A stretch of DNA of 64,000 nt from a virus. The position numbers and the translations under genes were made by a program. The notes beneath the pieces are model-generated. The model saw nothing but the letters and a program-made list of their open reading frames with translations, had not been told where the DNA came from and did no database searches. The stretch is taken from the IMG/VR virus record IMGVR_UViG_3300023174_000001, positions 62,001 through 126,000 of that record; one strand, 5' to 3'. Of this stretch, positions 34,949 through 63,217 are shown in pieces (position 1 is the stretch's first letter; every line of letters begins with the position of its first letter).

Positions 34949-35023
34949 CAGCCATTTTTTACCTCGTGCTTTCATGCATCTTTTACCCAGGTTGCCAGTT
35001 TTTCCTTGTATTACAATGAAGAC

Positions 35024-40958: not shown

Positions 40959-41432
40959 ATGCATCAGAAACTAGCAGAAAAGTTAGCGGTATGTTTAGGA
41001 GACACCGTTACCTATAAATTTATTGCTCACGGTTATCACTGGAATGTAAAAGGACCTGAGTTCACTCAGTTCCACGATTTCTTCCAAGAACTTTACGAGG
41101 ATGCGGACTCAGCAATTGACCCGCTTGCCGAAAACATTCGCAAACTTGGGTATGACTCTCCGTTCACATTAGAAGATTTTTCTTCATTGACCTGCGTACA
41201 TGTAAATCCAGTTTCTGGAGACCCGATGAAGATGGCTGAAAATCTTTACACAATCAATAAGCACCTGAAAGACTGTCTTACTGAAGCCTTTGACATTGCT
41301 AATGCTTGTAATGAGCAGGGAATTGCTAACTTCCTAGCAGAGCGTATTGATATGCACGGTAAGTGGATTTGGCAGATTGGGACCACTATTGGTGCTGACG
41401 CAACAGTTATCACAAGAATCGAGATTAAGTAA
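40959..41432 (+). CDS. Dps-like ferritin
   Basis: 157 residues, the usual Dps length. The ferroxidase ligands fit exactly: His27, His39, Asp54 and Glu58, with spacings 12, 15 and 4 as in E. coli Dps. The surrounding AHGYHWNVKGPEFTQFHDFF and the helix with ELYEDADSAIDPLAENIRKLG are typical. Dps proteins form 12-mers that oxidise iron, protect DNA from peroxide and can bind DNA. Its position between portal and giant virion proteins suggests a virion or head-linked role. ATG overlaps the next gene's start codon region (stop at 41432). Confidence 0.9.
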   Translation: MHQKLAEKLAVCLGDTVTYKFIAHGYHWNVKGPEFTQFHDFFQELYEDADSAIDPLAENIRKLGYDSPFTLEDFSSLTCVHVNPVSGDPMKMAENLYTINKHLKDCLTEAFDIANACNEQGIANFLAERIDMHGKWIWQIGTTIGADATVITRIEIK

Positions 41433-47400: not shown

Positions 47401-49903
47401 TAAAACACAAGATGAAAAAGATACTTTATTCAATTCTATTTTAGACATTAGAGAAAACTACGGAGAGGCTTTAGAGGCATTTGTCAAAGCCCAGTATCGA
47501 ATTACTCAAGAGTGGTTTGAAGAGCGTGGGATAAAACAACTTAGAGTTTATCGTGGCGTAAAAAAGCCTATCGGGGCGGATGAGAAGAGTGGGATAGTAA
47601 AACTTAGACCGCTATCCGCTTGGTCTCAAAGACTGGACACTTCTTTGGATTTTACAGGTGGCACAATTAATCCTAATGGGACAGTTTTTAGGTCAATAGT
47701 CGATGTAAAAGATATTTTCTCTACTCCTTTTACTGGGTTTGGTTGCTTAGAAGAAGAAGAAATTGTACTTCTTGGTGGCAAAAAACAAGTTGACGCAAAA
47801 CCAGTAAAGGATGTTTGGGGCGGTTTTTGGAAAGACGAGCCACAAGTTGTCATAAACAACGCCCCTATCCCAAACCTTGGGCCAAAAAAGGGTAAAGGCG
47901 GTCTGTCTAAAGAAATCGAAAGAAGACAGAAGCGGGTACAGCAACAACAAGAAGAATATGCTAAACGCCTAGAAGAGCAAGAAAAAGCCAAAGAAAATAT
48001 CAAGGGTCAGGTTGAAGCAGATAGAGAAGAGTTACAGCAACAAATTCCTCAAATTGCTCAGTCGCTACCGCCTATGGTAGAGGATTTATTTGACCCAAAT
48101 AACCCTATGAATATTTTAGATGCTAAAGACATAACTCAAGACATTTTTGGACTTCCTGGCAGTCCAGACATTAGAGAACCTTACTCGGTTTCGGTTTTGG
48201 AGCCAAACCAAGTTTGGAAAGATTTAGTAAAAAATCTAGAAAATCTAGGTTTATCAAATGCTAAAGATATTGAAAGTGAAGTAAATGACAAATTTAATTC
48301 ACAGATATTAGACATAAAAAGAAAAAGAAAAAATGCTTCTGAATCAAAAGAAAAATTAGAAAAATCTTTAGTGAGGGTGGAAAGAAGTATAAAGGCTCTT
48401 GAAGACGAGATGATAATAAATAATTTTGGACTCAATCGGCCTTCGACTGACCCTGCTACTGCACAATTTTTAGCCCTTATCTCTAGAATTAAATCCGATT
48501 TTGATAGTTGGGCTAACCAATATTATCACTTAAGAGCGGGTGGCCCCGCCGATATTGCTAGTTCTCCACTATATGATTTGGCAACTATGCTACATAAAGG
48601 CGAATGGTCAAGAATTGTGACAGGTGCTAATTCTCAACTAAATGAAATTGGAAAATTACAGGACAGCAGAGAGAGACAAAAAGGATTTGACAGAGTATTT
48701 GCAAAGGTTGTATTAGGCACCTACTTAGTTCCAAACATGGACTACGAGCAGAATCTTAAAAAAATACATGAGGAAAAGTATGTAGAAGTTATGTTAGGTA
48801 GAAAAGTACCTAAGAGCGTAGTAGATTCTGCTATTTTTGGTCTAAACAACGATTGGATGGAGTGGTATAAAGACGCGAGCAAACTAAGAAAAGCCACTGA
48901 CGATTTCTCTAAAAAGGTTTCTGAAGTTATAAAAGAGAAATTAAAGGAACTTGGAATTGAATTTGAACATGATGTGTCTATATCAGCAAACAACATAAAT
49001 TACATCGGCACTGGCAAAGTTAATATATTAAAACTGGCAGAAGGTAAGCCAAAGAGCGAGTGGTGGGAGGCTGATGGAAATGTCGGTACGCATCTAAAAA
49101 ATGCTTCCTCGTACGCCTCTATTTTAACAGAGGCTTTACAAGCATTCCCTAGGCCAATTGCCGTAGTCCTACAAAAATTTATAGTGGAGCATCCAGAAAT
49201 AATATTCTTTGGTAGCCGTAGAGGTGCTTGGGGTACCACCCCTAAAGACACAGATATAAAAGAAATAAAAAATGTTGACCCTAAAGATAAGCATATGTTC
49301 CTACAACTAGACGGTAGTACTAGGGAAGAGTCCGTGATTACCGCATCTCACGAACTAACCCATATGCTGATAACTCAAATTCTTCCTGAAATGCAACCAG
49401 TTGAGTGGGCAGTGTTGTCGTCGCTTATTAATCAGACAGATGCAAATGGTAAAATAAGCCACGACTTAATTGGAGCAAACGGTGGGGACATTTTGATAGG
49501 CGGGGAGTTGACATCTCTTTATCCTAACGATGCTAGGGCCCTAATGACGGCTGAGCCATCTGGCTACACTCCAAAAGTGGCAACTCCATACTCCACTAAG
49601 TATCAAAATTACGCAGGATTAGGGGCAAAAAGAGGCAGTGTAGTTGGCTTAAATCCATACGGACACGGAGAGTTACTATCTACATTGACGGAATCTATGT
49701 TTAATGGCTCTAATCAGGTGTTTTACGGGCAAGATGGAGTATCTCCTGGCGACAAAGTGCGTATAGGATATAATGCAGATGGAACAGTAAAATACTTTAC
49801 AATACCAGAATCGCCAATTTTTAATACTGGAGCACTTCCGCTTGGACTTGCGATAGCATTGTTAATGAACCAATTAGCGAAAGATAAGTTAGAGGTAATA
49901 TAA
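41432..49903 (+). CDS. Giant polyvalent protein with four ADP-ribosyltransferase-like domains and HExxH peptidase
   Basis: 2823 residues. An N-terminal part ends in a QRRDRKGRFAWMGGG motif (about 213-228) shared with the next giant. Four ADP-ribosyltransferase-like domains follow: about 870-985 (FRGAW, QSMG, DDE), 1128-1220 (FRGLG, ASFTRSAG), 1636-1722 (YRGIK, LSAWSTS, EKE) and 2038-2115 (YRGVK, LSAWSQ, EEEE). The last two belong to a ~400-residue tandem duplication. A coiled coil lies at about 2159-2205. HELTH at about 2639-2643 marks a zinc peptidase near the C-terminus. It overlaps the Dps-like stop. Such proteins may be injected with DNA to modify host targets; one or more domains may be inactive. 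Confidence 0.8.
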   Translation: MSEYEDFEPINEINKIIQSEDIQALPSIYEKKEKTNVVTEGTALVASANKKTLPNRRVGRFEMLEVLERSLSRTVLNFNNPSQRAFTAMRELSDFVNMATTGATPKIADAHRDLLPVGHPLSTKKHNFSQEELAYARAEWMSADPRIAEEFRPMVATAFVTPADSVEREYLIAKLEATDATLVPRDVILGLTAGGDPYGGGNSFLARSTRARAQRRDRKGRFAWMGGGAKVWLGELFNAVSSLFRFAGYNSKTDSFDLEGIPGSPYFGKIVSVPASKVEAVKAILPEIPGLALPKSKSVSKNLIVDPASLVVKDAPTGWTKVSSENGVDTFRSADGWVATRYPNLASAPNEPSITRVRGVNDDKSINPDLPVYHIAKGSSDGLITDKPFAITQGWGDAQALIARYDKKITSSGKRKKASKSAQQKFIKGWTKGEGGYIPGKWNAYTGTSDTAGGKDFYTDPSGRYVAVKLATKQEDIQDWMPDREGIIKRSDERTRKQVLESGLPIHTFDGAKDWDGNVDNLYRLERVKSDGRRELLGFYQDLEDIERDTEIPLTEDKSQDFYESVIADTIQNGGNTIDFVDGSWPEDGYIVAHEADIPQKGGTLAKREELVTPEDFADPIEGPKKLRAFVLKNQDKLSQQGFYLGTWLDTVDVTDENGKVVDQREMVFLDVSEYEPNFDKAFDKAEARSELAYYGVSEGRSFYVKDEKHRREVVRKTPVFDEAEEKRVRAEADKIIKEEGKWFSDNNLELQRTRVAFWKGSGDDAIPNPELQKDYPEIYRRLTRRFEAEKSRGSVFREYIRSVFQMSDGMDPGGRNDGLSGELLRTRDNYVGNDRKTLEMNKALRDGGDVTSKVQKIDALVNKSKLKDDTQFFRGAWLDPELVKDMEVGDMFFDRAFQSMGLEEDTASSYLDFREEVAPGKSRVIFRLLLPKGMNAIHVGDDEVIGRRNTKMRIIRKSKLDGTTYFDVDVEPQTKEEIDARIQGRVAKPEESKDGASSSKLPANDGGGTDGLGDGGTLPINYGPKPAGQRQNNRELESFDPNDPVPAAPRNAGGMTTGTWWAWEKGPDGQQYIDYMRQVACRLTGLPVPETQFDKGRGLHFMLSRGWGAPNEKSIAGMVNAIADGPAQPTLFRGLGISDVEGDASLLGKQVGDTIDMPLASFTRSAGVATWYANDRSRTSGTPVIIKVQQGANGVSLSAKSSYYPMDYETVVNGKFEVVSTEDVTMPFWDRSYVTFHSGNTQAGEPVDLDPVIARREFDIPPEVLVKVREALKANPDADLSEFGSDTIRFTNDRRQYDRQLSVSVWKLSEPKTFKVLELKQVEPLRIKTNNSDGTEQSDSTLLMGPISQNPAPTLSLNNSPKLMGERPEQATRIADPEEAIWDRALIDIGIRDEVIDETIRTQDNLENVTRQALKDHVSLEIRKKLKGVSDKEFVELMTQGLANNLTVEDFGFEGTRNIDFIGVVDIDGNSNRTRGLYTSIGRLISSSGGVPRNFPKDLADRLKTGKITRKDAEEVVRLLNEFRATPPFVDNGKLHIPSVDDKDFMEYLRYRTVSNLISMWAVSSNGTNPLSLAIQSVAEKEFGVKGMAEWDMPIGVANEVKDIAKKNENILRKFLRAQYDLTQEYFQKKGISKITLYRGIKEFMRHDIKDATFPSENGFMASIKLRPLSAWSTSMGIANRFRNIQSGKMFRKEFDVKDIFSLPSTGVGCFPEKEIVVLGGLTKDVDISGEYKVDQPRAVFPSPEPRPITYKEDQPQIQVNNAPIDLSRIPPDDGGEEPELDIFDLEGVNPFYADPAFHKQQVARNIADSDEMVEVSDFDMVELSGWFNLFSTDELEWGDDGKRAVGSIRLLALDNGEWSGDYDFSDLLSSVEENIKFGGVEPFKKGSVLERVVNGYINGEDPSISKEELAKFFEEYNEHFDVDYADSYLVPDIENQQFMNLLREEIASNLIHVWAETSNGDHPMSHAIQEIAADILDIKEPAEWDEGNKTQDEKDTLFNSILDIRENYGEALEAFVKAQYRITQEWFEERGIKQLRVYRGVKKPIGADEKSGIVKLRPLSAWSQRLDTSLDFTGGTINPNGTVFRSIVDVKDIFSTPFTGFGCLEEEEIVLLGGKKQVDAKPVKDVWGGFWKDEPQVVINNAPIPNLGPKKGKGGLSKEIERRQKRVQQQQEEYAKRLEEQEKAKENIKGQVEADREELQQQIPQIAQSLPPMVEDLFDPNNPMNILDAKDITQDIFGLPGSPDIREPYSVSVLEPNQVWKDLVKNLENLGLSNAKDIESEVNDKFNSQILDIKRKRKNASESKEKLEKSLVRVERSIKALEDEMIINNFGLNRPSTDPATAQFLALISRIKSDFDSWANQYYHLRAGGPADIASSPLYDLATMLHKGEWSRIVTGANSQLNEIGKLQDSRERQKGFDRVFAKVVLGTYLVPNMDYEQNLKKIHEEKYVEVMLGRKVPKSVVDSAIFGLNNDWMEWYKDASKLRKATDDFSKKVSEVIKEKLKELGIEFEHDVSISANNINYIGTGKVNILKLAEGKPKSEWWEADGNVGTHLKNASSYASILTEALQAFPRPIAVVLQKFIVEHPEIIFFGSRRGAWGTTPKDTDIKEIKNVDPKDKHMFLQLDGSTREESVITASHELTHMLITQILPEMQPVEWAVLSSLINQTDANGKISHDLIGANGGDILIGGELTSLYPNDARALMTAEPSGYTPKVATPYSTKYQNYAGLGAKRGSVVGLNPYGHGELLSTLTESMFNGSNQVFYGQDGVSPGDKVRIGYNADGTVKYFTIPESPIFNTGALPLGLAIALLMNQLAKDKLEVI

Positions 49904-50134: not shown

Positions 50135-50443
50135 ATGAAAATCACATTTCCAGATGGAAGTTTTCTAGAGTATTACTATTCTGTAGATATAAGTACTAAG
50201 TATCTAGACGATGAAAATTCTATAGCCCACCGTGCTTGGCTTGACTGGAGAATTTTACTTATGGGCAAAGAGCAAAAAACCTATAAGTTTAAAAAATTTC
50301 TAGGGTCAATGGACATAAAGGCAGATGACCCGCTTTTCTTTAGAATGTTTATTGAGGATAACTTCCCGCTTGCCAAATTTAATGGCGACTTAGTTCAAGA
50401 AATTCCAGAAGAATATAGGCCTTTAGGATTTATTGTAGAATAG
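50135..50443 (+). CDS. Hypothetical protein
   Basis: 102 residues, 1 bp after the previous gene. Aromatic-rich, mixed alpha/beta, no motif recognised. Between the two giants; possibly a chaperone. A 90-bp gap with TATAAT and TATACAAT boxes follows. Confidence 0.6.
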   Translation: MKITFPDGSFLEYYYSVDISTKYLDDENSIAHRAWLDWRILLMGKEQKTYKFKKFLGSMDIKADDPLFFRMFIEDNFPLAKFNGDLVQEIPEEYRPLGFIVE

Positions 50444-50477
50444 GACTACCTAATAAATAGGCTAATAGACGCACTGC

Positions 50478-50500
50478 TATAATTTTTTTATACAATAGCG
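50478..50500 (+). promoter_or_regulatory. -10-like boxes before the second giant gene
   Basis: TATAAT (about 50478) and TATACAAT (about 50490) lie 35-50 bp before the ATG at 50534, but no good -35 was seen. Confidence 0.4.
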
Positions 50501-50533
50501 GTTCCTTTTGAAGTCAGTCCAGGAGAATTTTTA

Positions 50534-53500
50534 ATGACCTACGCCTTTGGCATTTACTTTGAAGATGATGACAACCTCGGACTGGTAGCGGCTGGTAATC
50601 GCTGGAATTCTGGCGGAAACTCTACTTTAGCCCGTCGTCTCCGTGTGGCTATGCAACGCCGTGACCGTTATGGTCGCTGGGCTGAAATGGGTGGAGGAAT
50701 CTCCTTCAAAGGTAGGTTCGGCAACACTGGAAGAGTCATGGATGCCGTTGGTCGTTATGTCGGCCCCGCTGAGCGTGAAGGCTATATGCGTGTCTATGTC
50801 ACCAGCGGAAGAGGTCTTCAAACTGGTGTCTATGAAGTGCCATCAAAAGTTGCCACTGTAGCAAAGGCTCTTCTAAGTGAAGAAGCCCTAAAAGATGTCG
50901 GCGTAAACCTAGATGTCAATGGAAACCAAGTTGGCGATGTTTTAGATAGAGATATTGAATTCTTCGCTGGAATGTTCAAGGGCAAGCCAACCGATTTTGA
51001 ATTGGATATGGCTCGTGGCAAGGTTAGCCCGAAAGAGAAAAATACAATTGTAAAGGCTCGTCTAAAGGCTCCAGCCCACAAGTCATACAACATTGTTGAT
51101 AAGAACGGCGTTCGTATTGACAAAGATGAAGAGCCTACTAAGCCAGATGTAAAGAAGCCAAGCAAAAAGGCTAAGCCAGCCGAAGTCTTCCCGCTACCAG
51201 ACTTAGATAAAGATATAGCGGAAGAGAACCCTAAGAAATGGGCAACGCTATCTGAAGAAGAACGAGCAGCAAAACTTAAAAAAGAGCGTAGTCGTCGTGA
51301 CTTTTATGTAGGTGCTAATGGCAAGCGTATTCCAGATAATAAACTAACTGACGCAGATAAAACTCCAGAGAACCGCCGTATCCGTGACTTAAAGAACCAC
51401 CGTGTTCTTGACGGCAATGGTCGTCTTATAGAGTTCATTCCAGAGTATAAGCCAGAAGCAAACCCAGTGCCACAGGGCGAATTCCACCCAGTGGAAGACC
51501 CAGATGAAGGCTTTTGGAACGCCAACCAAGTAAAGCCGGGGGAAGTTCAAAAGAACCTGACTACTCCTGAAGAAGTTTACGAAGCACTATATAACGGTGG
51601 ATTTGTTGAAGTACCAATAGAACTAGCACTAGCAGCGGGTGATATTGCTTATGCTGATTTGCCATTCATAGGTAGAGACGAAAACCCTCTATTCCAGTCA
51701 AATCCTAATGACCCTAGATTTAGAGAAATTGCTAATATCCTCTCTTCTCTACCTCCAGCACAGGAAAACAGACTAAAGCGTGCCATAAACCTAGCCCTCA
51801 TGAGTGAAGAAAAAATTGATGCTCTAAAGGCTTATCTAGAAGAAAATGTTGGAGAGGCTACTGGTTTATCCCCAGAAGCGTTTGCTGAACTGCACAAAAA
51901 ATTCCGTAACCTAGGTGTCGACCTCACCAACATGCGTATCCAAGGTGTAGATGCTTTCAGCAACGATAACCTCGGTGCTGAGCGTATTAATATGCCTCAA
52001 CTTGACGCAGACGACCAAGCGGATTTCTTGGCATACTGCGACAGACTTGGTATCAACTACAAAGAAGCAATGGCTAGACCGCAAGAACTGCACCCTATCC
52101 AAGCAGAAATGGACTTTGGGGATGTCATAAAGATTAAGAAATCTTGGCTGGACCCTGAACTTCGCAAGAGGTTTGGTATGGATGACCAGTACCTATTTGT
52201 TACTAGAGACGGTTATGTTCTAGACGGACATCACAGATGGTCATCTGCTCTTCTTGCTGAGATGGAGAGCGGTAAGCCAATCAACCTAAAGGTAATGGTT
52301 CTAGATATGGACCACGAAGATGCCTTGAAGTTTGTGAACGAGTACAACGACCATGTTGGTATCACTCGTCAAATGGTTGGCGGAAATAAGGTCGCTGACC
52401 CTAGACCTGAGGCCCCTAAAGCCGAACTACCTACAGGTCCATCTGTTGTTTCTGATGATGGCGGAATTGTTCCAAATTATGGCCCAGAAGGACCAACGCC
52501 ACCTGATGGCGGGGACAATGTAGTAACTCCTAGTGGAGAAAACTTTAATAACTGGCTCGATAGAGAACTTGCCAATGTTGGCGACAGGATTATTCCAGAA
52601 TTTAGCGGAAAACTAACTAACGATACCCCTAACCCAGAGAGCAGAACCAGCCCTTTCCCTGGCTCTCGCACCGTGGTAACTAATCTTTTGGCATATAGAG
52701 ACTCACTGATGTCTGCACTGAAAGAAAGTGCACTTGACGGAAACACTGAAAAATTCAAGTTTCAATTTGAAATTGCTAAAAGAGTTACAAAACTCTTAAA
52801 TAAGATACACGAAAATTTTTCTAACGACAAAAAATATGGTGCCGATACCGAACTAGAACTTAGTACTAGCAATCCTGAAGAAAAACTAAAAGCAATTAGA
52901 GTTCTTCCAGAAACTATGAAGACCGAAATTGATAATAGAGGAATTAAGAGAATAAAGTCATTTAGTGCCGTAATTATTGCTAAAAACGGAAAACCTTTCT
53001 TACTAAAGTGGTCTACGCATTCTTCACAGGCTTACAGTATTAAGCCAGATGGAAGCATTAACTCTACTAATGACGGCGGTGGAACAACTTTTGCAGAAAT
53101 CCAAGACTATAACAGTGTAGTTGATGGAAAACCAGTAGCAACGATTGCCCATGTGGGTGGAGCATTTACCGAAGATAGCCACCATGCTCTAGGCTTTGGT
53201 GGTGCCCACATTATGCTATCCCGCTGGGTTATGCATATGTTTAATGGTGGAAAACTTCAGCACAGTTCAAACTTGAGTGCTAGAGGAAACGCATACTCAA
53301 AGATGGTCTCTAGAGACATGCGTTGGAACAATAGAGCACAGGCGGACAAAGCAGTTCAAGTAAATTGTCCAAATGCGGATATTTTTAAAGTCCTCACAGA
53401 CATGGGATTGGTTGACGGGGAATATATTCCAGCAACACCTGGTGCTAAGCAGAATGATAATACTCCTGGTGGACATGGAAGTTCCAGTGGTGGAAGAGGT

Positions 53501-56500
53501 TGGCTAAAGAGACTAACATTCACAAATAATCAAGGTTGGTCTGACAATGCTTCTGTTTTAAGAAGTTTTAGCATAAACGGCATTGTTTCAGATTTAGAGC
53601 AAAGATTTAATGCCAAGACCGATGAAGAGAAACAGGCAGCACTAGATGCTATGCCACCTATTTTTAGAGATTTCTTTGCTGGAGATAAGTCTAGAAATAT
53701 TGAATTCCGTTTCGAGGATTTTGATGTTCAGTATAATTTGCTTGCTACTGCTTATAGCGATGGAATGAAGCAGCAGGAAGCCGTAGATTTCTTAAACACA
53801 TTAATTGATGGATTGCCTCAACTTGACGCTGCCTTTGGGTTAAACAGAGCACATACAGACTCAATTCAAAAATTAAAGCGTCTAAGAGACGCTATAGCGG
53901 CTCGTCAATGGGACCAAGCCAACAATAACTACAACAGACCTAAGCCTTTCAATACAAACAGCATTCGTGCTATTCAATCCCCATTTGCTGGACACTTCAA
54001 GTTCAATGAATGGCAACTTCCTAGAGATGTAAATAGGATTATGAATGACCTGCCGTTTGACCCAAGACCAAGAAGCAACGGAGAACATGCTGACTGGACA
54101 GAAGACCCTCAACGACTACAAGAGTTGTACGGACCTGAAACTCTTCTCGCTTCTCTTAGAGACTCTATTCTCAGGAATAAAGGTAAAATTGCCAATCTTC
54201 CAGCACTATCTACTGGTGCTGATGGTGTAAACAATGTAAATCCAACTGCTGTCTACAAAGCATTGGAAAACCACGGATACGATACTGAACTTATCCTTGC
54301 TGGAATTTACGATGAACTAAATGGCAACACCGCTAACACAGATGCTTTGACTGCAAAAAGAAGTGAACTTGGAAACCTACAAGGCATCATTGAGCAGTTG
54401 GCAAGAGAAGTTGGACAATTAGACGAGCCAGTAGAATTTTCTAGCATTGGTGGAGACTATGACCCAGCAAGCCGTATTCTTCAATCAGACATTGTAAAGC
54501 GTGGAGATGTCGGAGAAGTTCCTACATCACTTCAACTAAAACCGCTTGCCTTAGACAATGAATCTTACGATTATGTAAACGCTAACGGCGGTAGAAGTCA
54601 AGTAATGCGAAATGCATCCTATGTTCCGCAAATACCTCTTTCTAAATTTTACATTGATGGGGTAGCAGATAATCCAAAGATTATTGCTAGAAACTTTAAC
54701 CCAACTGGTCTAAGGAACGCTCTAATTGACGCTGTTTCAAACAACAGAAACTCAGTCAAACTAAGATTCCCTAATGGAAATGAACTAATTGTTGAAAACG
54801 CTGCTATTAGAGATGCTCTACAACTTCAGGGTTATGACATCAACAGAGTTTTGTCAGAACAGACAACCATAAGACCAGCAATAAAACAGATTTCTAGTAT
54901 TCAAGATAGAGATGATGTTGACGGCAATGGCACTAGAGTTACTGATTTTGGTATTGGAACAGACATAGCAAATGGTCCTGGATTTAGACAAAAGAGAAAT
55001 GATGGAACAGGCGAGTTTGATTTCTCATTAGTAGATTTAACTAATCCAGCAAGAAATACAGTCGCTCAAATAGCAAAAATAAAGAAAAATGCAGACGGTA
55101 AATTTGAAGTTTGGGTGGCAAAAAGGGCAGATGGAAAAACTGACGAGTTTACTGGAGAGCCTAACGGTGTATATGAAAATGTACAAAATGCTCTTTTTGA
55201 TGTAAAAAACCACATTCAAAAAGAACTAAATATTAATGCCAACACAAACCTTCTAGGAACCGCTTCAAAACCTGTTGCTAGTCCTGACTATTCTATTGTC
55301 GGCGGTCAAGATGACGAGTCTCAAATTACCGTCGGAGATATGGTCCTAACTAAGCCAGACGGGGCTGAATCTTTTGTAGTTTACACAAACGGAGACAGTG
55401 CAAGAGGATTTAGAAGAATACCTGGCTCTGAAGATGGTGTCAGTACTGGAACGGTATACACTCAGACCGTTCAATCAACTGGAGACATATATTCAGAATC
55501 ATTCAAGCATGTCTCTAAAGATGTAGATGGCCAACTCAAAGAAAAGCAAGTATTTGCTATTACAAAGATTGGCGATAAGTTCCAACTAACCACCAACAGG
55601 TTTGGTAGTGACAACTTAAGTCCAGATAGGACAGAGACTCTAATTTTTGGTAGTTATGATGATGCCAAAGATTTTGCAGTTAGAGGACTAATTAACGGCA
55701 AAATTGGTTTTCAAACTGACCAAGTTAAAAACTTCCCTAACCTAACAACAACTAGAGAAGTAACTAAGCCATCAGCAGATTTGCCAAATCAACAGATTAC
55801 TCAGGATGCTGCCTCTATTCAGATAGTTACACCTGCAACTATGACTAGCGGAGTAGTTGGAGAACTGAAAGTAACTGTCCAAAAAGGTGCCCACCCTGCT
55901 TGGAGAAATGGTGTTGTAAACACCCCTTATGTTTTTGCTGAGTTTAGTTTCTCTCCACCAGCATCACAAGGCGGAGAGCCAGCATACATAACTGGTAAAA
56001 TTATTAGAACTGGTCGCTCAGAGTGGCAAGTAAAGATGACTGGAAACAGTCCTAGTTTTAATGAAAATGGTCAATATATTAGCGGTTCTCTCAGGGAGGG
56101 CACCAATTACGAATCTACTAAGCAAGATGCCCTAGACAGACTAAAAAAGAAACTTGATGCTGCTTTTGGTATAGAAGAATCCCAAAGAGACCGAGGAGAG
56201 TCTGTTCTACCTAGAATTAGACTTGTTGATAAGGCCGTTGAACTTGAGCCTAAACCAGAACCTCCTGCCTCGGATGACCCTAGTCTGCTTGCAGATGGTG
56301 TCTTTGATGAATTCTTGGCAGTTAGAAACACTCCTCTTGATATTCCAGACGCTACAAGTCGTGGGTACATGGGTCTGGGGATGTCTGACTCTGCGAGATT
56401 TGAAACTCCAGATGGTAAAAACTACAAGGTCAAAGATGAGGGCAGTAGAAAAGCAGCATCCGAGTCATTAAACCACGCTCTACATTTGGCCTTGGGAATT

Positions 56501-59500
56501 CCAGCAACTCCCGCTAGAACTGGAAAAGCACCTGGCACAAGAAACCAAGTCAACCTAATTGACCCGTTCGAACCAGACATTGTTCCAGGTCGAGTAAATG
56601 GTAATATGAATGGTCAAGAACTATTTACTAATGCCGAGTTCAACAAGCCAGAAAACCAGCAAGCAATTGCCGACATACAAGAGGGTCTAATAATTGACTA
56701 CTGGCTTGGAAATGTTGACTTTGTACTAAATTCAGGAAACTCTTTTGTCGCCGTGAGAGATGGCGTAAGAAGAGGTGTTCGTTGCGATGTTGGTGGAGGA
56801 ATGTTCTCCGCAATTGGACAACAGGTAATTAATGACTGGACTGACCCAAACGAAGCGGTAAGAGAGTTTAAGCACTATAACAACGATTTCATGGGCAATA
56901 ATGATACAGTCGCTGGCTCAACCACCGATGGGCACATGAGACGAGGCCTCACTAAAGAAAAGTATGTTGAGATGGGCAGAAGAACCCTTCTCCGCCTAAC
57001 AGACGATAAAATCGACAGATTAGTTGATGCCCACATCACCGACCCTACCGATAACGCTAGAGCAAAACAGGCTCTAAAGGCTAGACGCGTAGCAATGCTT
57101 AATTATCTAGGCATTGACCCTAATGAGGCACCACCAACAGGTGGACAGCCTAGGCCGACATACGCAATTTTACCGAATGCTCAGTTGGCCAGAGACGGCT
57201 ATGAGTTTGTCGGAATCAATGTTGAAGGTAAAAAAATTGTAAGAACTAGGGGAGCCGTTCTATCCGACGGAGTCTTTGTTGCCCCGATTGAGAATATTCC
57301 AGAAGCAGTCAGAGAAAACATAATTAATGGAATTTTTGTTCCAGAAAATCTACCTTTCCACGCCATAGATAGAAATGACCAAAGTAAATCTATCGTCATT
57401 GACGGTGCTGGATTGGTTAGACCTGCTTCATCTATTGCTGCTGGATACACATCTCTAATTATTAGAAAGAAACTTCCTAACGGGCAGTACGGATATTTGA
57501 TTGCTAGACCTGGCAACACTGAACTAACTAAACCACATGGTAAGGCAAACGCAAATAAGTTTGGTCCAATCATTCATGAAAACACACCTGGCCAACCTCC
57601 AAAAAATGCAAAAGATATTGTAAATGAGATTTTTGGAACAGGCAATGCTGGAATTGGCGACAGAGTTATTGCTGAAAAAGAGATTCTTTTAGATATTCCT
57701 GGTTTACTTGGGAAGCAAAGAGTTTTAGTTGCCGATATTGATGACTTTGACTTCTCTGCTACTAGAGATTTTGCAATGGCTAATGGTCAAATTGGGCCAT
57801 CAAAATTTGCAACAGGTGCGAACTTTATAAAAGGATACCCACACACTCCTATTCTTTCTCAGGCTCCTGGCGATGGCGATAGAATTGCAAACAAACTTAG
57901 AGAGTGGGAACAAAACTGGCATTCTACTGCTAGCAATGTTCCTACTGAATCAGACAACAGAAGCGGTGGAGACGACGGAAGCGGTCCATCAAATCCTGGC
58001 GGTGGCGATGGCGGAGGTGGAACTAGCGGACCTCCTCCATCTGGCTCGTCAGATGATTGGAAGACTCACTCTAGAATTTCTTTGGTATCTAGAAGACCTG
58101 GATTCCCAGAAACAATAACACGACTCAACATTTTTAGTAGAGCAGACGGTGCTCTTGCTGTAGATGATGTGAGTTCAGGAAACACAATTGGCCATATCAA
58201 GCCACTTGAGCACGGCCACTGGGTAGCAACATTTATGCCTGGCCTTATCGGAGATAATAATAACGGTAATGCTGCTAAGGCGTTCTTTGCAAATAAAAAA
58301 GATGCTGAGAACTGGCTAACTAAAAAAATCTATGACCTAAGTTATGCTGACCCTAGAGGTGGAGAAAGAATTGCCACCACGGTTGGCGTTTCAGGAGATA
58401 GGTCTTATGACGAAAATGCTCCTCAACCTCCTTTTGTTGTAGAAAGAGGATTCCTAAACCCAACCACTCCTGCTCAAACTCGTTTGGCTAAGAGACTTGT
58501 CAAGGGTAAGAAGGCAACTCCTGAAGAAAGGGCTATGTACAAAGCCATTCTTTCTCAGAAAAACCCTACCGTTGGCGATGTTGGTTGGATAATTGGTCAA
58601 CTTAGAGATAGAGAAGATAGGGATTCAGCAGAACTAGCAGCATCAAAGCAAGCACAAAACGATGCTGTAAATGCTGGCAATCCTATTAGAGAGTCTTCTT
58701 TGGATAACGGCGGAGATGGCTCTAACAGAGAGCACACTGTTCTCGCTAAAAACCTACAAGTTGGTCAAAGAATTCTTGGCAATATCAATGCTGATGTTGT
58801 ATTCACCGTTCCAGGTGAAAACGACACTATCAATATTGGTGTAGTTGGAGATGACGGAAAACTTAAGGTTTACAAGGTCAATAAAAATAGAAATCTTACT
58901 TGTATTTTTGGAAGACAGCCACAAGTTGCCCCAGCACAGCAAGCAACTCCGCATCCAGCCGTCGCTGCTCGTGCAAATAGAAGCAGACTAATTCAAGAAG
59001 CAATTAGAACAGCGTATCCAAATTCTCACGCTCTTCCTAACGGCGACTTAGTTATTGGTCAAAGAGACCACCGTCAAGCCGATGGTAGAGTATTCCGCTA
59101 CGAAGCAGTGGTCCACAAACTGAAGTCAGATGAGTTTGTTGGTTATGTGAGAAGACAACTTCTAGATGCTAACGGAAACCCTACTGGAACTGGCGAGGCT
59201 GCTTACCTAACTAAGCCAGCCCACTCTCCAAGAGCATTGAAGAACAGATTGTCAGGTAGAGTTATTCCTGCTCTTATGGCAAACAACCCAGCAAACGGGT
59301 TCAACCAGCCAAATGGTGACCGTCAGAACGAAGCAATTGACCCAGCAACTGGATTGCCACTACCAGAGAGCCTAGTATCTCAAACACGATTTGTTGGCAA
59401 TACTGGAATTGAAAGCACTGGACACCCTGCCAAAGACGCTCTTATTGAGTATGTTCAAACACTTGTTGCTAGAGGAGTTTCTGCTCCAGAGATTATTAAC

Positions 59501-62500
59501 CAAGTAGTTGGGCCTAACCAGCGTCTATTCTCTCGTCAGCAGATGGATGACATTATCGAGCGTCTTGAGGCTAACCGTCTATATCCTGGTGTGAATGTTA
59601 TTCCTTATGTATCTAAGGACAACAAGACCATTGTTCGTGTTGGAGACCGTGTAACTCACTATGACGCATTCGGTCAGCCAAAACTGATGGCTAACGGTCA
59701 ACCTAGAACTGGTACTGTAACTGAACGCAGACCATACACGCTAAACATGAAACCAAATGGTGAGTATGAATACACCGACCAAGTTTATGTACAGTGGGAT
59801 GACACACCAAGACCGCATCAGGCTGCTCCACGCCGTTTAGAAGTAAACAGAAGAGCAGATGGAAGTGACCCAGTTCCAGCGGTACAAAATGCCAACGAAG
59901 AAGGCACACCTCCTTACATTGAAACCATGCCATTACAACCAAAGCGTGTTGTCCCTAGACCAGTTGCCCGCAGACCAGTAGCACCCCCTCCTGCTGACTC
60001 ACAAGACATTGCAAATATTGGAAATGTAAGAATCCTAGTAGTTCCTAACGGACCTACATATAGTGTTGACCGTGGAGATGAGTACACTCAGTTCCAAGAT
60101 GTAACCGACGCTGGAAACTACTCTGGTATTTATGTAATAAAGGTTAGCAACGGCGGTAAATGGCTTGTGAAAGAGAGAGATGGAGTCGATGTACAAGTTC
60201 TAGCCGAGTTTGATGACAGAAATCAAGCCGAAGCACACGCTATGGACCTCATCAATCAAAATGGTGGAAGGCAGACTCAGGAGAGGCTAGAGACTAGGGC
60301 CGATGCTCCTATCGCTGAAAGAGGGACACTTATCAATGCCAACAATGTTGGTGAATTTGAAAGAGTAGTAGACCCTAGCGGAATGGGTCACACTATTCTG
60401 CGTGGTGCCAATATGACTAGGTTTGACAAAGACCAAGGCGATGGAATACCTAATGCTATTTATGTCCAGCAAAGAGACGATGGCAAGTGGCATGTCATCC
60501 AACAAATGCCAGACGGAAATGGTGGATACGACACTAGAAGTGTTGCTATCAACGATGACAGAAATTTGATGGAAGCAGTTGCTACAAATATCGTTGCTGG
60601 CAATACTACTGCCGAAGCCTACATGCAAATGTGGGGAAATCCAAACCAGCCAAACGCTCCAGAAAACAACGATAGTGCCATCACCCCATTGATAGAGCGA
60701 TTCAACGCTAATAGAATGCCATTTGGTTTCTCTCTTGTTAGAGGTGCTGATTTAGGTGGAGAATTTGGTACCAACATAATGCTTAAGGATACTCAAGCGG
60801 ATGCTGCTGGTCTAAACTCCATAAAAGGTCGTATCACTCAAAACGAAAACGGTAATTATGTAGTTCAAAAGTGGGGCGGTAACGGCGGATTTGTAGGCAG
60901 AGAAGAATATCCAGGTATTATGACTGCTCTAGAAGTTCTTAGTATGCACGCTCTGTCTGTAAGACTTGAAAGAGATGGAAATAACTCTCCAGAATCTAGT
61001 AAGCCTTCGTCTAGCCCATCTTCTCCTAATGGCGGAGATGGCGGTGGAGTTCCACCTACCAACCCACCTGCTGGTGGAGATGGCGGAGCATCAGATGGTC
61101 CGGGACTAGACTTGAATATGGGTAGATGGAGACAAGGCCAGCCACCTCAGGGAGTCGGCCGCGTTGACGGTGTAGTTCCAAAGGTAAACACATTCTGGGA
61201 TGATGACCAGCCACCTACTCGGTACGATGTTGTCAGAGATGAAAACCGTACCAAGTTTATTGGTCGTGCTGGAGACAACCCTGGTGCAGAAGCGTTTGTT
61301 TATGTTGAAAAAACTCCGCTCGGCAACTGGAGAATGGTTGACCCTAGAGAAAGAGGCGATGCTAGATACAGTGCCGAGTATGGTGACCGTAATGTCGCAG
61401 AAGCAATTGCTATCAACAAGATGGCTGGTCGTGAAGACCTAAACCAAGAAGTTCTTGGTCAGCCTGACTCGAATGTTGCTCCTGCTCCTCAGACGCTACC
61501 TAACGGTATAGTCGAAAGTCGTAGCGAATCTATGACTCTATATGTTAACCGAGATGGTAATCTCAATGAAATTCAGGTAGTCGCTCTTGGTGGCGGAAAG
61601 GCTTGGCAAGTAAATAGAAATGTGCCTGGCCAAGCCACAGAAGGATTGTCATACCACGGGACCCGTGAGGATGCTGAAAGAGAGGCTAGAGAAAGAATTG
61701 CTCAAGAAAATGCTCCTGCCAACAATGCTCCAGCGGGACCTGCTGCCACAGACAGCGAATCCCCTACTAGCGGAAAATCTGACTCTGGACTGAGACTTGG
61801 CGAGTTCCGTGCTCCAGACGGAATGATTGAAGAGATGAATGCCGACGGAACCTACTCTACCGATTTCCGCATTGGCGACAAAACTTTCCAAAGAGTTAGA
61901 ACTCCAAGTAGTGCTTCTTATTACTACAACGGTTTTGAAATTGCTACTACTGAAAAGAATTCAGATGGAACTTTCAATGTAAAAACCATTTGGGCAAAAG
62001 ATGCTAGCGATTTTGTAGTAGCAAGAGATGAAGAAAATGCATTACTAAATGCTCAGTCTCAAATTTGGGCAGCAACTCAAGACGGCAGAGTTAGCAAAAT
62101 AGATGGTGACCAAGGCCCTAGCGATGGTGGCAACCCACCTGCTGGACCTTCGGGTGGAGATGATGGTAACGGTGGTAACGGCGGAAACGGTGGAACCCCA
62201 CCTACCAATAATCCGCCAGCGGGACCTGCTCCAGCAGCACCTACTCCAAGCCAGCCAAGCAGACAGCCTCGCACAAGAAAGCCTGTTGTAAATGAAGTTC
62301 AACCTGGCGATAGATATGTTAGATACAACTCAAGGCGTAACGATAAGCCTGGAGGCGAAAGAACTCACTGGGATATCTACGATAAAAGAACTGGCAAGGT
62401 AATTGCTAGGGCAACTGAAAAAGAAGTAGCGGATGACATTGCTGCTGGAGTTAGGGACAAGAATGGAAACCCTATAAACTTTGACACTCCATCTGGCGGT

Positions 62501-63217
62501 CAAAGTGGCAATGCTCCAGCAACTCCACAAGCAAATGCCCCAACTGCTGGTCAGCCTACTGGAACTAGAACTAACCTTGGCGATGGGATATTCTCAGTTC
62601 ACAATGAAAATGAGGAATACGGTATTGCGATTAGAGGTGCTGACGGTAAGTGGTCAGCAAGAGTCCACGAAAACGCTGTGGATGCCATAAGCAACAATAA
62701 CCCAATCTCTACTGGAACTTATGACACCCCAGAAGAAGCCGAAGCCGCTATTCGTAAAGCAATCGCTGAGCGTCAAGCCCAGCGTAAAGCAGCCAACACT
62801 CTTCAGTGGCAGTCTGGTTCAGACGGCAAGCAGTACTTGGGTCTAGACGGAGTTGCTGGAGTAGATGCTGAAAACTCACCTGTTTATGGCGTAAGCCCTA
62901 GTCCTTTCGGGGGTTGGGTAATGGCTCGCTGGGACTCAAAGGCTGCTAAAGATGCTGGAGCACCACCAAACTCAATCGTGGCTCAGCCAGATGAAGAGGC
63001 TGCCAAGAATGATGCCCTTCAGCAAATAAATGATTTCTTGCGTAATTTGACTGGACAAAACCCACCATTAGTAAATGATGAAAATCCAACCACTCCAACT
63101 AATAGAGCGGAGCAATTGCCACCCGGTACCACGATACAGGACCAAGTTGATGCTGGGTTAACTACCCCGTTCAACCCAAATGCTGATTTGCCGGGAAGCA
63201 ACCCCCCAAAAGCATAA
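50534..63217 (+). CDS. Giant modular protein with ParB-like, HipA-like kinase and many repeated beta modules
   Basis: 4227 residues, AGGAG upstream. Starts with an N-terminal GGNSTLARRLRVAMQRRDR block (about 25-55) shared with the first giant. Visible domains: ParB/sulfiredoxin-like VLDGHHRWSSALL (about 561-573); a HipA-like kinase region (about 1950-2195) with LGNVDFVLNSGN and RCDVGGGMF; a possible KOW-like segment near 3020-3090. From about 1500 on, at least a dozen 70-95-residue beta modules, each ending in a helix with an AE..A pattern, are joined by Gly/Pro-rich linkers. It ends at TAA after CCCAAAA, where the -1 frame continues. Likely a polyvalent or virion protein ejected with DNA. 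Confidence 0.8.
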   Translation: MTYAFGIYFEDDDNLGLVAAGNRWNSGGNSTLARRLRVAMQRRDRYGRWAEMGGGISFKGRFGNTGRVMDAVGRYVGPAEREGYMRVYVTSGRGLQTGVYEVPSKVATVAKALLSEEALKDVGVNLDVNGNQVGDVLDRDIEFFAGMFKGKPTDFELDMARGKVSPKEKNTIVKARLKAPAHKSYNIVDKNGVRIDKDEEPTKPDVKKPSKKAKPAEVFPLPDLDKDIAEENPKKWATLSEEERAAKLKKERSRRDFYVGANGKRIPDNKLTDADKTPENRRIRDLKNHRVLDGNGRLIEFIPEYKPEANPVPQGEFHPVEDPDEGFWNANQVKPGEVQKNLTTPEEVYEALYNGGFVEVPIELALAAGDIAYADLPFIGRDENPLFQSNPNDPRFREIANILSSLPPAQENRLKRAINLALMSEEKIDALKAYLEENVGEATGLSPEAFAELHKKFRNLGVDLTNMRIQGVDAFSNDNLGAERINMPQLDADDQADFLAYCDRLGINYKEAMARPQELHPIQAEMDFGDVIKIKKSWLDPELRKRFGMDDQYLFVTRDGYVLDGHHRWSSALLAEMESGKPINLKVMVLDMDHEDALKFVNEYNDHVGITRQMVGGNKVADPRPEAPKAELPTGPSVVSDDGGIVPNYGPEGPTPPDGGDNVVTPSGENFNNWLDRELANVGDRIIPEFSGKLTNDTPNPESRTSPFPGSRTVVTNLLAYRDSLMSALKESALDGNTEKFKFQFEIAKRVTKLLNKIHENFSNDKKYGADTELELSTSNPEEKLKAIRVLPETMKTEIDNRGIKRIKSFSAVIIAKNGKPFLLKWSTHSSQAYSIKPDGSINSTNDGGGTTFAEIQDYNSVVDGKPVATIAHVGGAFTEDSHHALGFGGAHIMLSRWVMHMFNGGKLQHSSNLSARGNAYSKMVSRDMRWNNRAQADKAVQVNCPNADIFKVLTDMGLVDGEYIPATPGAKQNDNTPGGHGSSSGGRGWLKRLTFTNNQGWSDNASVLRSFSINGIVSDLEQRFNAKTDEEKQAALDAMPPIFRDFFAGDKSRNIEFRFEDFDVQYNLLATAYSDGMKQQEAVDFLNTLIDGLPQLDAAFGLNRAHTDSIQKLKRLRDAIAARQWDQANNNYNRPKPFNTNSIRAIQSPFAGHFKFNEWQLPRDVNRIMNDLPFDPRPRSNGEHADWTEDPQRLQELYGPETLLASLRDSILRNKGKIANLPALSTGADGVNNVNPTAVYKALENHGYDTELILAGIYDELNGNTANTDALTAKRSELGNLQGIIEQLAREVGQLDEPVEFSSIGGDYDPASRILQSDIVKRGDVGEVPTSLQLKPLALDNESYDYVNANGGRSQVMRNASYVPQIPLSKFYIDGVADNPKIIARNFNPTGLRNALIDAVSNNRNSVKLRFPNGNELIVENAAIRDALQLQGYDINRVLSEQTTIRPAIKQISSIQDRDDVDGNGTRVTDFGIGTDIANGPGFRQKRNDGTGEFDFSLVDLTNPARNTVAQIAKIKKNADGKFEVWVAKRADGKTDEFTGEPNGVYENVQNALFDVKNHIQKELNINANTNLLGTASKPVASPDYSIVGGQDDESQITVGDMVLTKPDGAESFVVYTNGDSARGFRRIPGSEDGVSTGTVYTQTVQSTGDIYSESFKHVSKDVDGQLKEKQVFAITKIGDKFQLTTNRFGSDNLSPDRTETLIFGSYDDAKDFAVRGLINGKIGFQTDQVKNFPNLTTTREVTKPSADLPNQQITQDAASIQIVTPATMTSGVVGELKVTVQKGAHPAWRNGVVNTPYVFAEFSFSPPASQGGEPAYITGKIIRTGRSEWQVKMTGNSPSFNENGQYISGSLREGTNYESTKQDALDRLKKKLDAAFGIEESQRDRGESVLPRIRLVDKAVELEPKPEPPASDDPSLLADGVFDEFLAVRNTPLDIPDATSRGYMGLGMSDSARFETPDGKNYKVKDEGSRKAASESLNHALHLALGIPATPARTGKAPGTRNQVNLIDPFEPDIVPGRVNGNMNGQELFTNAEFNKPENQQAIADIQEGLIIDYWLGNVDFVLNSGNSFVAVRDGVRRGVRCDVGGGMFSAIGQQVINDWTDPNEAVREFKHYNNDFMGNNDTVAGSTTDGHMRRGLTKEKYVEMGRRTLLRLTDDKIDRLVDAHITDPTDNARAKQALKARRVAMLNYLGIDPNEAPPTGGQPRPTYAILPNAQLARDGYEFVGINVEGKKIVRTRGAVLSDGVFVAPIENIPEAVRENIINGIFVPENLPFHAIDRNDQSKSIVIDGAGLVRPASSIAAGYTSLIIRKKLPNGQYGYLIARPGNTELTKPHGKANANKFGPIIHENTPGQPPKNAKDIVNEIFGTGNAGIGDRVIAEKEILLDIPGLLGKQRVLVADIDDFDFSATRDFAMANGQIGPSKFATGANFIKGYPHTPILSQAPGDGDRIANKLREWEQNWHSTASNVPTESDNRSGGDDGSGPSNPGGGDGGGGTSGPPPSGSSDDWKTHSRISLVSRRPGFPETITRLNIFSRADGALAVDDVSSGNTIGHIKPLEHGHWVATFMPGLIGDNNNGNAAKAFFANKKDAENWLTKKIYDLSYADPRGGERIATTVGVSGDRSYDENAPQPPFVVERGFLNPTTPAQTRLAKRLVKGKKATPEERAMYKAILSQKNPTVGDVGWIIGQLRDREDRDSAELAASKQAQNDAVNAGNPIRESSLDNGGDGSNREHTVLAKNLQVGQRILGNINADVVFTVPGENDTINIGVVGDDGKLKVYKVNKNRNLTCIFGRQPQVAPAQQATPHPAVAARANRSRLIQEAIRTAYPNSHALPNGDLVIGQRDHRQADGRVFRYEAVVHKLKSDEFVGYVRRQLLDANGNPTGTGEAAYLTKPAHSPRALKNRLSGRVIPALMANNPANGFNQPNGDRQNEAIDPATGLPLPESLVSQTRFVGNTGIESTGHPAKDALIEYVQTLVARGVSAPEIINQVVGPNQRLFSRQQMDDIIERLEANRLYPGVNVIPYVSKDNKTIVRVGDRVTHYDAFGQPKLMANGQPRTGTVTERRPYTLNMKPNGEYEYTDQVYVQWDDTPRPHQAAPRRLEVNRRADGSDPVPAVQNANEEGTPPYIETMPLQPKRVVPRPVARRPVAPPPADSQDIANIGNVRILVVPNGPTYSVDRGDEYTQFQDVTDAGNYSGIYVIKVSNGGKWLVKERDGVDVQVLAEFDDRNQAEAHAMDLINQNGGRQTQERLETRADAPIAERGTLINANNVGEFERVVDPSGMGHTILRGANMTRFDKDQGDGIPNAIYVQQRDDGKWHVIQQMPDGNGGYDTRSVAINDDRNLMEAVATNIVAGNTTAEAYMQMWGNPNQPNAPENNDSAITPLIERFNANRMPFGFSLVRGADLGGEFGTNIMLKDTQADAAGLNSIKGRITQNENGNYVVQKWGGNGGFVGREEYPGIMTALEVLSMHALSVRLERDGNNSPESSKPSSSPSSPNGGDGGGVPPTNPPAGGDGGASDGPGLDLNMGRWRQGQPPQGVGRVDGVVPKVNTFWDDDQPPTRYDVVRDENRTKFIGRAGDNPGAEAFVYVEKTPLGNWRMVDPRERGDARYSAEYGDRNVAEAIAINKMAGREDLNQEVLGQPDSNVAPAPQTLPNGIVESRSESMTLYVNRDGNLNEIQVVALGGGKAWQVNRNVPGQATEGLSYHGTREDAEREARERIAQENAPANNAPAGPAATDSESPTSGKSDSGLRLGEFRAPDGMIEEMNADGTYSTDFRIGDKTFQRVRTPSSASYYYNGFEIATTEKNSDGTFNVKTIWAKDASDFVVARDEENALLNAQSQIWAATQDGRVSKIDGDQGPSDGGNPPAGPSGGDDGNGGNGGNGGTPPTNNPPAGPAPAAPTPSQPSRQPRTRKPVVNEVQPGDRYVRYNSRRNDKPGGERTHWDIYDKRTGKVIARATEKEVADDIAAGVRDKNGNPINFDTPSGGQSGNAPATPQANAPTAGQPTGTRTNLGDGIFSVHNENEEYGIAIRGADGKWSARVHENAVDAISNNNPISTGTYDTPEEAEAAIRKAIAERQAQRKAANTLQWQSGSDGKQYLGLDGVAGVDAENSPVYGVSPSPFGGWVMARWDSKAAKDAGAPPNSIVAQPDEEAAKNDALQQINDFLRNLTGQNPPLVNDENPTTPTNRAEQLPPGTTIQDQVDAGLTTPFNPNADLPGSNPPKA

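What the first reader, a model, noticed from the sequence alone, without database searches (positions are those of the whole stretch)
50534..63217. A 12.7-kb gene: giant modular protein with ParB-like and HipA-like domains
4227 residues is very large even for phages. A ParB/sulfiredoxin-like motif, a HipA-like kinase region and many repeated beta modules with Gly/Pro linkers are visible. The repeats share G-x-W-x-V strands and end in an AE..A helix but differ strongly in sequence, so they are old duplications. The design fits polyvalent proteins that travel with phage DNA and act on host defence.
Basis: partly seen in the sequence, partly recalled or inferred. Interest (0 to 1): 0.75.

Follow-up and report, generated by a model that had tools for sequence, protein, structure and literature searches.

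The report
Giant multi-enzyme phage head-cargo protein
This 4,227-residue phage protein appears to carry a kinase, a ParB-like enzyme and many small beta modules behind a short tag that also occurs in the phage's head protease and in giant proteins of many related phages, so it may be a swappable enzyme payload that is loaded into the virus head and injected into the bacterium.

Summary
The gene is real: one 4,227-aa frame at 50534-63217 with a ribosome-binding site, a 52%-identical full-length relative and purifying selection. It lies in the head gene cluster, between portal and head protease/major capsid genes. The ParB reading is supported by sequence and fold. The HipA-like kinase reading is well supported: the model matches CtkA (Z 15.7) and HipA/HipT (Z about 11-13), and catalytic Lys, Glu, Asp and Asp are invariant in 18 sequences. 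The beta modules are real, but only three are demonstrably homologous, and modules are gained, lost and relocated. A new observation: an N-terminal module (helix, RDxxGRF motif, small beta barrel) with no Pfam, PHROG or NCBIfam match heads this protein, its 2,823-aa neighbour and giants in 80 viral loci examined. 71 of these have the portal gene just upstream, and a diverged copy sits inside the head protease. Tagged relatives carry ArdC-N, MPTase-PolyVal, helicase, exonuclease and acetyltransferase domains. Best reading: a polyvalent head-cargo protein, the tag probably directing it into the prohead. Packaging, injection and targets remain inferred.

The parts
50534..63217 (+). g2, the 4,227-aa giant protein
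50615..50872 (+). N-terminal 'GRF' module (aa about 28-113): helix, QRRDRYGRWAEMGGG, five-stranded small barrel
   Evidence: A1/A7 alignments; AF2 pLDDT 73-87 over aa 41-110; weak Tudor/SH3-like matches, Z up to 4.8; no Pfam, PHROG or NCBIfam match
51899..52378 (+). ParB/sulfiredoxin-like domain (aa 456-615; fold core about 504-618; Arg568)
   Evidence: phrog_2859 E 2.9e-20; ParB-N 5k5d E 0.01, prob 1.00, Z 6.5; viral ParB/Srx models; present in 4 of 6 family members
53996..54403 (+). d1160: uncharacterised domain (aa 1155-1290) always N-terminal to the kinase; partial second copy at aa 1355-1442
   Evidence: 16 of 16 representatives with both have the order tag, d1160, kinase
54971..56173 (+). 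three beta modules (strands plus C-terminal helix), aa about 1480-1880
   Evidence: AF2 model m0e2bb4e3c30f
56351..57148 (+). HipA/CtkA-like kinase domain (aa about 1940-2205): Lys1967, Glu1977, Asp2062, Asn2069, Asp2085
   Evidence: A4, residues, Foldseek CtkA E 2.8e-5, Z 15.7
58055..58363 (+). beta module, aa 2508-2610 (assigned from sequence; not modelled)
59981..60643 (+). stretch with two modules (aa about 3150-3370) present here, absent in L011, L008 and L019
60059..60262 (+). module aa 3176-3243 (GKWLV)
60383..60604 (+). module aa 3284-3357 (GKWHV)
61217..61429 (+). module aa 3562-3632 (GNWRM); homologue at aa 231-309 of L020
61496..61708 (+). module aa 3655-3725 (KAWQV); homologue at aa 313-383 of L019; DUF2188 only at E 0.076
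61781..63058 (+). further C-terminal modules, aa 3750-4175, with Gly/Pro linkers (not modelled)
41432..49903 (+). g1, 2,823-aa neighbour with the same module at aa about 200-290 and weak ART matches
39129..40949 (+). portal protein
   Evidence: phrog_776 E 3.3e-104
35006..36412 (+). terminase large subunit
   Evidence: PF03237 E 4e-20

Best explanation
g2 is a polyvalent head-cargo protein of a phage that probably infects actinobacteria. Inferred mechanism: late in infection the N-terminal GRF module binds a prohead component (scaffold, inner shell or portal). g2, the tagged neighbour g1 and the head-maturation protease, which has a diverged copy of the module, are thereby brought into the prohead. 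g2 leaves with the DNA at the next infection. In the new host the HipA/CtkA-like kinase phosphorylates host proteins and the ParB/Srx domain acts on nucleotides or nucleic acid, while the swappable beta modules serve as binding or spacer units. Shown here: gene, location, ParB and kinase folds with conserved catalytic residues, the shared module and its distribution, module turnover, purifying selection. Inferred: binding of the module in the prohead, packaging, injection, enzyme activity and targets.
For: Position between portal and head protease/MCP. Module found in all 80 loci kept (of 185 found); 71 of 80 have a portal upstream on the same strand, median 1,731 bases, none with a portal on the other strand. 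15 of 80 loci show two or more module motifs. A module HMM finds the head protease of this phage and of relatives at E 8e-6 to 0.014, best reversed decoy 1.0. In 16 tagged giants scanned (of 41 representatives): RNase_T in 7, UvrD in 6, MPTase-PolyVal in 2, ArdC-N in 2, ADP-ribosyltransferase in 2, GNAT in 1. Kinase fold: CtkA Foldseek E 2.8e-5, Z 15.7; catalytic residues invariant in 18 of 18. ParB. The ParB stretch also matches a Klebsiella phage giant that carries LPD39, 'large polyvalent protein associated domain 39'. dN/dS below 1 in every segment where it could be computed.
Against: No virion proteomics, no activity data. No curated polyvalent-protein domain of Pfam is found in g2 itself. 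ParB is missing in 2 of 6 family members (L019, L020), so it is not essential to the design. 13 of 30 representatives of 1,900 aa or more lack the kinase, several of them cut off by the locus end. The linker stretch tested is about as constrained as the domains, so dN/dS does not single out the enzymes. The module's barrel has no confident structural match. Nine of 80 loci show no portal upstream; most are cut short or preceded by another tagged giant, but L041 is unexplained.
Confidence: 0.68

Rival explanations
1. An internal head structural or scaffold-like protein: the giant's main job is building or filling a large head, and the enzyme folds are vestigial or work in assembly only.
For: Location in the head cluster; low-complexity linkers and many beta modules; module shared with the head protease.
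Against: Kinase catalytic residues invariant in 18 of 18; tagged relatives swap clearly enzymatic domains, including ArdC-N and helicases; core order tag, d1160, kinase in 16 of 16.
Confidence: 0.14
2. A late-expressed, non-packaged kinase that acts in the producing cell, for example against superinfecting phages, as proposed for the HipA-family kinase encoded between portal and MCP in Gratiaviridae (PMC8008677).
For: Same gene position and kinase family as in that report (passages read).
Against: It does not account for the N-terminal module shared with the head protease and with g1 or for the polyvalent domains of relatives.
Confidence: 0.14
3. A tail-fibre or adhesin protein whose beta modules are receptor-binding repeats.
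For: Repeated beta modules with Gly/Pro linkers; one module weakly matches a tail-collar fibre model (PF12571, E 0.055).
Against: Gene lies upstream of protease and MCP; kinase and ParB folds are embedded; the weak match is below the Pfam cut-off.
Confidence: 0.02

Closest known systems
Polyvalent proteins of phages and conjugative elements (Iyer et al. 2017, PMC5512222)
   Same: Very large, several unrelated activities in one chain, ParB/Srx domain, late phage genes near virion genes; tagged relatives carry MPTase-PolyVal and ArdC-N.
   Different: The kinases described there lost the C-terminal subdomain and occur mainly in Verrucomicrobia-Chlamydia and Bacteroidetes elements; 'HipA' does not occur in the text (passages read). 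The kinase here matches CtkA/HipA over 226 residues. The GRF module matches no Pfam, PHROG or NCBIfam model here.
HipA-family kinase between portal and MCP in Gratiaviridae gut phages (PMC8008677)
   Same: HipA-like kinase gene between portal and MCP (passages).
   Different: Different hosts (Bacteroidetes); no mention of polyvalent proteins in that paper (0 occurrences); the authors propose immunity to other phages.
CtkA of Helicobacter pylori (3akl, 3akk) and HipA/HipT kinases
   Same: Fold: Z 15.7, rmsd 3.7, 226 residues for 3akl_A; HipA/HipT Z about 11-13.
   Different: Sequence identity about 13%; here one domain of a 4,227-aa protein, no toxin-antitoxin operon recognised.
Microbacterium phage Pumpernickel gp82 and Actinomycetia phage DSL-LC01 WJZ48510.1
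   Same: Giant (2,235 and 3,289 aa), same gene position, same N-terminal module; DSL-LC01 also shares d1160 and the kinase.
   Different: Annotated as hypothetical proteins; the remaining domains differ. gp82 has a weak PI3/PI4-kinase match near its C-terminus.
Klebsiella phage vB_KpnP_ZX1 PLxRFG protein
   Same: ParB-like stretch (34% identity).
   Different: Otherwise different domains (SLT transglycosylase, helicase, methyltransferase, LPD39); no GRF module found.
T4 capsid targeting sequence (cited in PMC10052503)
   Same: Concept: an N-terminal signal that takes proteins into the prohead.
   Different: T4 signals are short propeptides (recalled); here about 85 residues with a predicted folded barrel, and no cleavage has been shown.

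Membership tests
Polyvalent proteins (PMC5512222) | Domains with disparate biochemical activities in one polypeptide | tested here: met
   ParB/Srx fold plus HipA/CtkA-like kinase in one chain
Polyvalent proteins (PMC5512222) | Encoded by a phage with portal-terminase packaging, near virion genes | tested here: met
   TerL, portal, protease and MCP in the same cluster
Polyvalent proteins (PMC5512222) | Carries a curated polyvalent-associated domain (MPTase-PolyVal, ArdC-N, LPD) | tested here: inconclusive
   None in g2 by Pfam; present in tagged relatives and in the ParB-sharing Klebsiella phage giant
Polyvalent proteins (PMC5512222) | Packaged in the virion and delivered with the DNA | not testable with these tools
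   needs virion proteomics and an injection assay
HipA/CtkA-like kinases | Two-lobed HipA-like kinase fold | tested here: met
   CtkA Z 15.7, HipA and HipT Z about 11-13
HipA/CtkA-like kinases | ATP-binding Lys, catalytic Asp, Mg-binding Asn/Asp | tested here: met
   Lys1967, Asp2062 and Asp2085 sit in columns invariant in 18 of 18; Asn2069 lies in a pattern shared by eye, not an invariant column; the roles are assigned by analogy
HipA toxin-antitoxin toxins | Adjacent antitoxin gene | tested here: inconclusive
   Neighbouring 102-aa and 202-aa ORFs have no PHROG match; no antitoxin-specific search was made
[quoted passage not shown]
   Strands 509-514, 554-557, 561-564, 585-590 in the model; Arg568 in GHHRW, kept in the four members with the domain
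DdrB-like ParB domains | Asp/Asn at end of strand 2 and a Tyr-bearing extra helix | tested here: inconclusive
   An Asp (RDG) follows strand 2 closely; the Tyr of NEYND is Trp in L008
Phage tail fibres | Encoded in the tail module | tested here: not met
   Lies between portal and protease/MCP
T4-type capsid targeting sequence | Sufficient to take a foreign protein into the prohead; removed by the prohead protease | not testable with these tools
   needs a reporter-fusion assay

The most novel reading that the evidence does not exclude
The roughly 85-residue GRF module (helix, RDxxGRF, small beta barrel) is a previously unnamed prohead docking tag. In a large group of phages that includes actinophages it is carried by the head protease and by one to three giant cargo proteins per phage. 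The cargo behind it is freely exchanged (kinase, ParB, helicase, exonuclease, ART, ArdC-N, beta modules), which makes it a general system for loading a virus head with enzymes.
Probability: 0.45. Interest if true: 0.8.

Novelty: new variant of a known kind. Interest (0 to 1): 0.62.

Why it matters
If the shared module is the loading signal, one short tag explains how dozens of unrelated giant proteins of these phages, most without useful annotation, reach the virion. It gives a handle (a profile search) to list injected phage effectors, a route to assign them to host takeover, and a simple laboratory test with isolated Microbacterium phages. It also extends polyvalent proteins to HipA/CtkA-like kinases with an intact C-lobe and offers another reading for HipA-like kinase genes seen between portal and MCP in other phages.

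Tried and rejected
DUF2188 as the identity of the beta modules: no match in the genome, and only E 0.076 for one module; AP2 E 0.043, tail-collar fibre E 0.055 and the others are all below the Pfam cut-offs. Rejected as unproven.

Sequence searches of the Protein Data Bank with the kinase alignments A2 and A4 and with A7 gave nothing significant; the kinase rests on fold and conserved residues. Pfam HipA_2 reached only E 0.25 in one of 18 members. PDB searches with two stretches of g1 also gave nothing.

The first ParB profile seemed to hit L020 (E 9e-46). L020 had been a misaligned row of that profile; the stricter profile from four members does not find it, so ParB is counted as absent in L019 and L020. 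The helA profile hit in the C-terminus of g2 probably has the same kind of cause and was not used. The module hit at 499-556 of L020 was left out by hand; it is now read as a 3655-type module (E 0.046).

The module was not found in 84,980 bacterial and archaeal genomes: 30 stretches matched the pattern, none was a relative. This does not exclude diverged prophage copies.

Near-identity DNA search of phage records found nothing. The defence library gave no match.

Papers: PMC5512222, PMC8262856, PMC7824862, PMC10611076, PMC8008677 and PMC10052503 were read as passages only; the others were seen as listings and abstract starts. Searches for print on such a module or on polyvalent proteins in Microbacterium or actinobacterial phages. 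I saw no description of the module in those listings; subscription journals and preprints are mostly not held.

An earlier count said 12 loci carry two or more tagged ORFs; the table gives 15, which is the figure used.

Full report
What is there. The window lies in a 135,069-base virus record (positions 62001-126000). Two WhiB-like genes in the record, a family that in the 14 control genomes rings only in Corynebacterium, point to an actinobacterial host. The reported frame is real: 50534-63217, 4,227 aa, uninterrupted, with CAGGAGAA ahead of the ATG. A 4,242-aa relative in L002 is 52% identical over residues 1-3143, another of 4,108 aa is in L008, and three partial ones (L012, L019, L020) complete a family of six (L002 and L011 are the same contig, as are L003 and L012). 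dN/dS for W-L008 is about 0.27 overall, 0.13 for the kinase and 0.15 for the N-terminal module; synonymous sites are near saturation in parts, and a linker of 35 codons is about as constrained (0.21), so the measure supports the frame, not a particular domain.

Neighbourhood. Upstream on the same strand are the terminase large subunit (35006-36412, PF03237 E 4e-20), the portal (39129-40949, phrog_776 E 3.3e-104), a 157-aa protein (phrog_3636) and a 2,823-aa protein, g1. Downstream, in L007, follow ORFs of 202, 71 and 228 aa, a 1,620-aa protein matching head maturation protease and other head families, and a major head protein (phrog_777 E 4.1e-69). The gene thus sits inside the head cluster, not among tail genes.

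ParB. Residues 456-606 match phrog_2859 (E 2.9e-20). The AF2 model of aa 1-640 (mean pLDDT 69; about 80-91 over most of the domain) gives as best solved structures ParB-N and sulfiredoxin (5k5d E 0.01, probability 1.00; Z 6.5, rmsd 4.3, 99 residues, with ParB, Noc and Srx filling ranks 1-14). Against viral models it finds proteins named ParB/Sulfiredoxin at E 4.9e-8 and weaker, behind three other rows. The PDB E-value is above 0.001, so that match alone would be modest; sequence and fold together make it likely. The stretch is 34% identical to part of a 3,867-aa Klebsiella phage protein that also has LPD39, 'large polyvalent protein associated domain 39'. With a strict profile the domain is present in W, L008, L011 and L012 and absent from L019 and L020.

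Kinase. Eighteen sequences (W and 17 loci) align over about 250 residues with invariant Lys1967, Glu1977, Asp2062 and Asp2085 and several glycines. The AF2 model of aa 1480-2210 has mean pLDDT 77; in the kinase part the 10-residue means are mostly 71-94, with a loop at 56-61. Foldseek ranks Helicobacter CtkA first (E 2.8e-5; three chains below 0.001, all CtkA). VIA-align gives CtkA Z 15.7 (rmsd 3.7, 226 residues), then HipA and HipT at about 11-13, and PI3-kinases below 10.

Beta modules. The model shows three units of several strands ending in a helix between aa 1480 and 1880. In the C-terminal third, modules at 3176-3243, 3284-3357 and 3562-3632 detect each other at E about 4e-5 (best reversed decoy 0.69); the others are too different to prove common descent. 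Modules move: the 3562 type is at aa 231-309 in L020 (E 2.7e-24), the 3655 type at 313-383 in L019 (E 5.6e-19), and the stretch 3150-3370 exists in W but in none of the three relatives that reach that far. Synonymous distance is also patchy: W is close to L011 in the tag, ParB and 3555-3640 segments (dS 0.35-0.64) but not in the 660-960 or kinase segments (saturated or about 2.0), which suggests exchange by recombination.

The GRF module. Alignment of g2 with g1 and with giants of DSL-LC01 and Pumpernickel shows one shared piece: a helix, then QRRDRxGRFAxMGGG and a small barrel. A scan of viral contigs found 185 loci; the best 80 were kept. Ninety-nine module-bearing frames from the loci L008-L093 reduce to 41 representatives; the motif lies at aa 7-342 (median 201) and 30 frames are at least 1,900 aa long. 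In 71 of the 80 loci a portal gene lies upstream on the same strand, 155-2,486 bases from the motif (median 1,731); none has a portal on the other strand. Of the other nine, L014-L016 and L042 begin in or close to the giant, L079 begins in the phrog_3636 gene, L060 has only 3.6 kb upstream, and L053 has another module-bearing frame of at least 3,032 aa upstream; L051 was not checked separately and L041 is unexplained. Fifteen of 80 loci show two or more motifs. A profile of 36 module sequences also finds a diverged copy (QVRDGGGRFATQG plus barrel-like sequence) at about aa 350-415 of this phage's head protease and in the corresponding proteins of relatives (E 8e-6 to 0.014; best reversed decoy 1.0). 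In the pieces that cover G000 the looser pattern R[DN]xxG[RK][FWY] occurs five times in frames of 80 aa or more: g1, g2, twice in the protease and once in an unrelated small frame. The AF2 barrel (aa about 38-118) matches only Tudor/SH3-like folds weakly (Z up to 4.8). No Pfam, PHROG or NCBIfam model matches the module.

What else the tag carries. Sixteen of the 41 representatives were scanned with Pfam at E 0.01: RNase_T in 7, UvrD helicase in 6, MPTase-PolyVal in 2, ArdC-N in 2, KTSC in 2, ADP-ribosyltransferase in 2, GNAT in 1, PI3/PI4 kinase in 1. The kinase occurs in 17 of 41, an uncharacterised domain d1160 in 17, both in 16, and in all 16 the order is module, d1160, kinase.

How it most likely works. 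A polyvalent head cargo: the module docks the giant in the prohead (inferred from sharing with the head protease, which is expected to work inside the prohead, as established for tailed phages such as T4 and SPN3US). The giant is injected (inferred) and the kinase and ParB domain act on the new host (inferred from folds and conserved residues). The beta modules are likely binding or spacer units (speculative). Iyer et al. (PMC5512222, passages) define polyvalent proteins and describe ParB domains of the DdrB kind in late phage genes; the kinases they report lack the C-terminal subdomain, and HipA is not mentioned. A HipA-family kinase between portal and MCP was reported in Gratiaviridae and read as immunity to other phages (PMC8008677, passages). 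The present case differs in the tag, the size and the domain set, hence 'new variant of a known kind'. The step that would lift it is proof that the module is a loading signal.

Noticed in passing
window 41432-49903 (g1): The neighbouring giant has repeated stretches with YRG ... LSAWS ... EKEI/EEEI spacing (about aa 1600-1770 and 2090-2170, by eye) that look like duplicated R-S-E ADP-ribosyltransferase domains; Pfam support is weak (DRAT E 6e-4, ADPrib_exo_Tox E 5e-4, both below cut-off). It also has an HELTH zincin-like motif near its C-terminus (by eye).
   Followed up: partly
G000:C1:33083-33280 and 51213-51410: Two WhiB-like genes in the phage genome.
   Followed up: no
window 50440-50533: AT-rich intergenic stretch ahead of g2 with a TATAAT-like word and a short GCTAT...ATAGC inverted repeat (by eye).
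   Followed up: no
L031 3506-11551: Three consecutive module-bearing frames (669, 1,113 and at least 701 aa) downstream of one portal gene.
   Followed up: partly
L005 17962-24669 (Pumpernickel gp82): Weak PI3/PI4-kinase match near the C-terminus (E 7e-5, below cut-off), possibly a second kinase type behind the same tag.
   Followed up: no
window 53996-54403 and 54596-54859 (aa 1155-1290 and 1355-1442 of g2): Domain d1160, duplicated in the family and always before the kinase (16 of 16); function unknown.
   Followed up: partly
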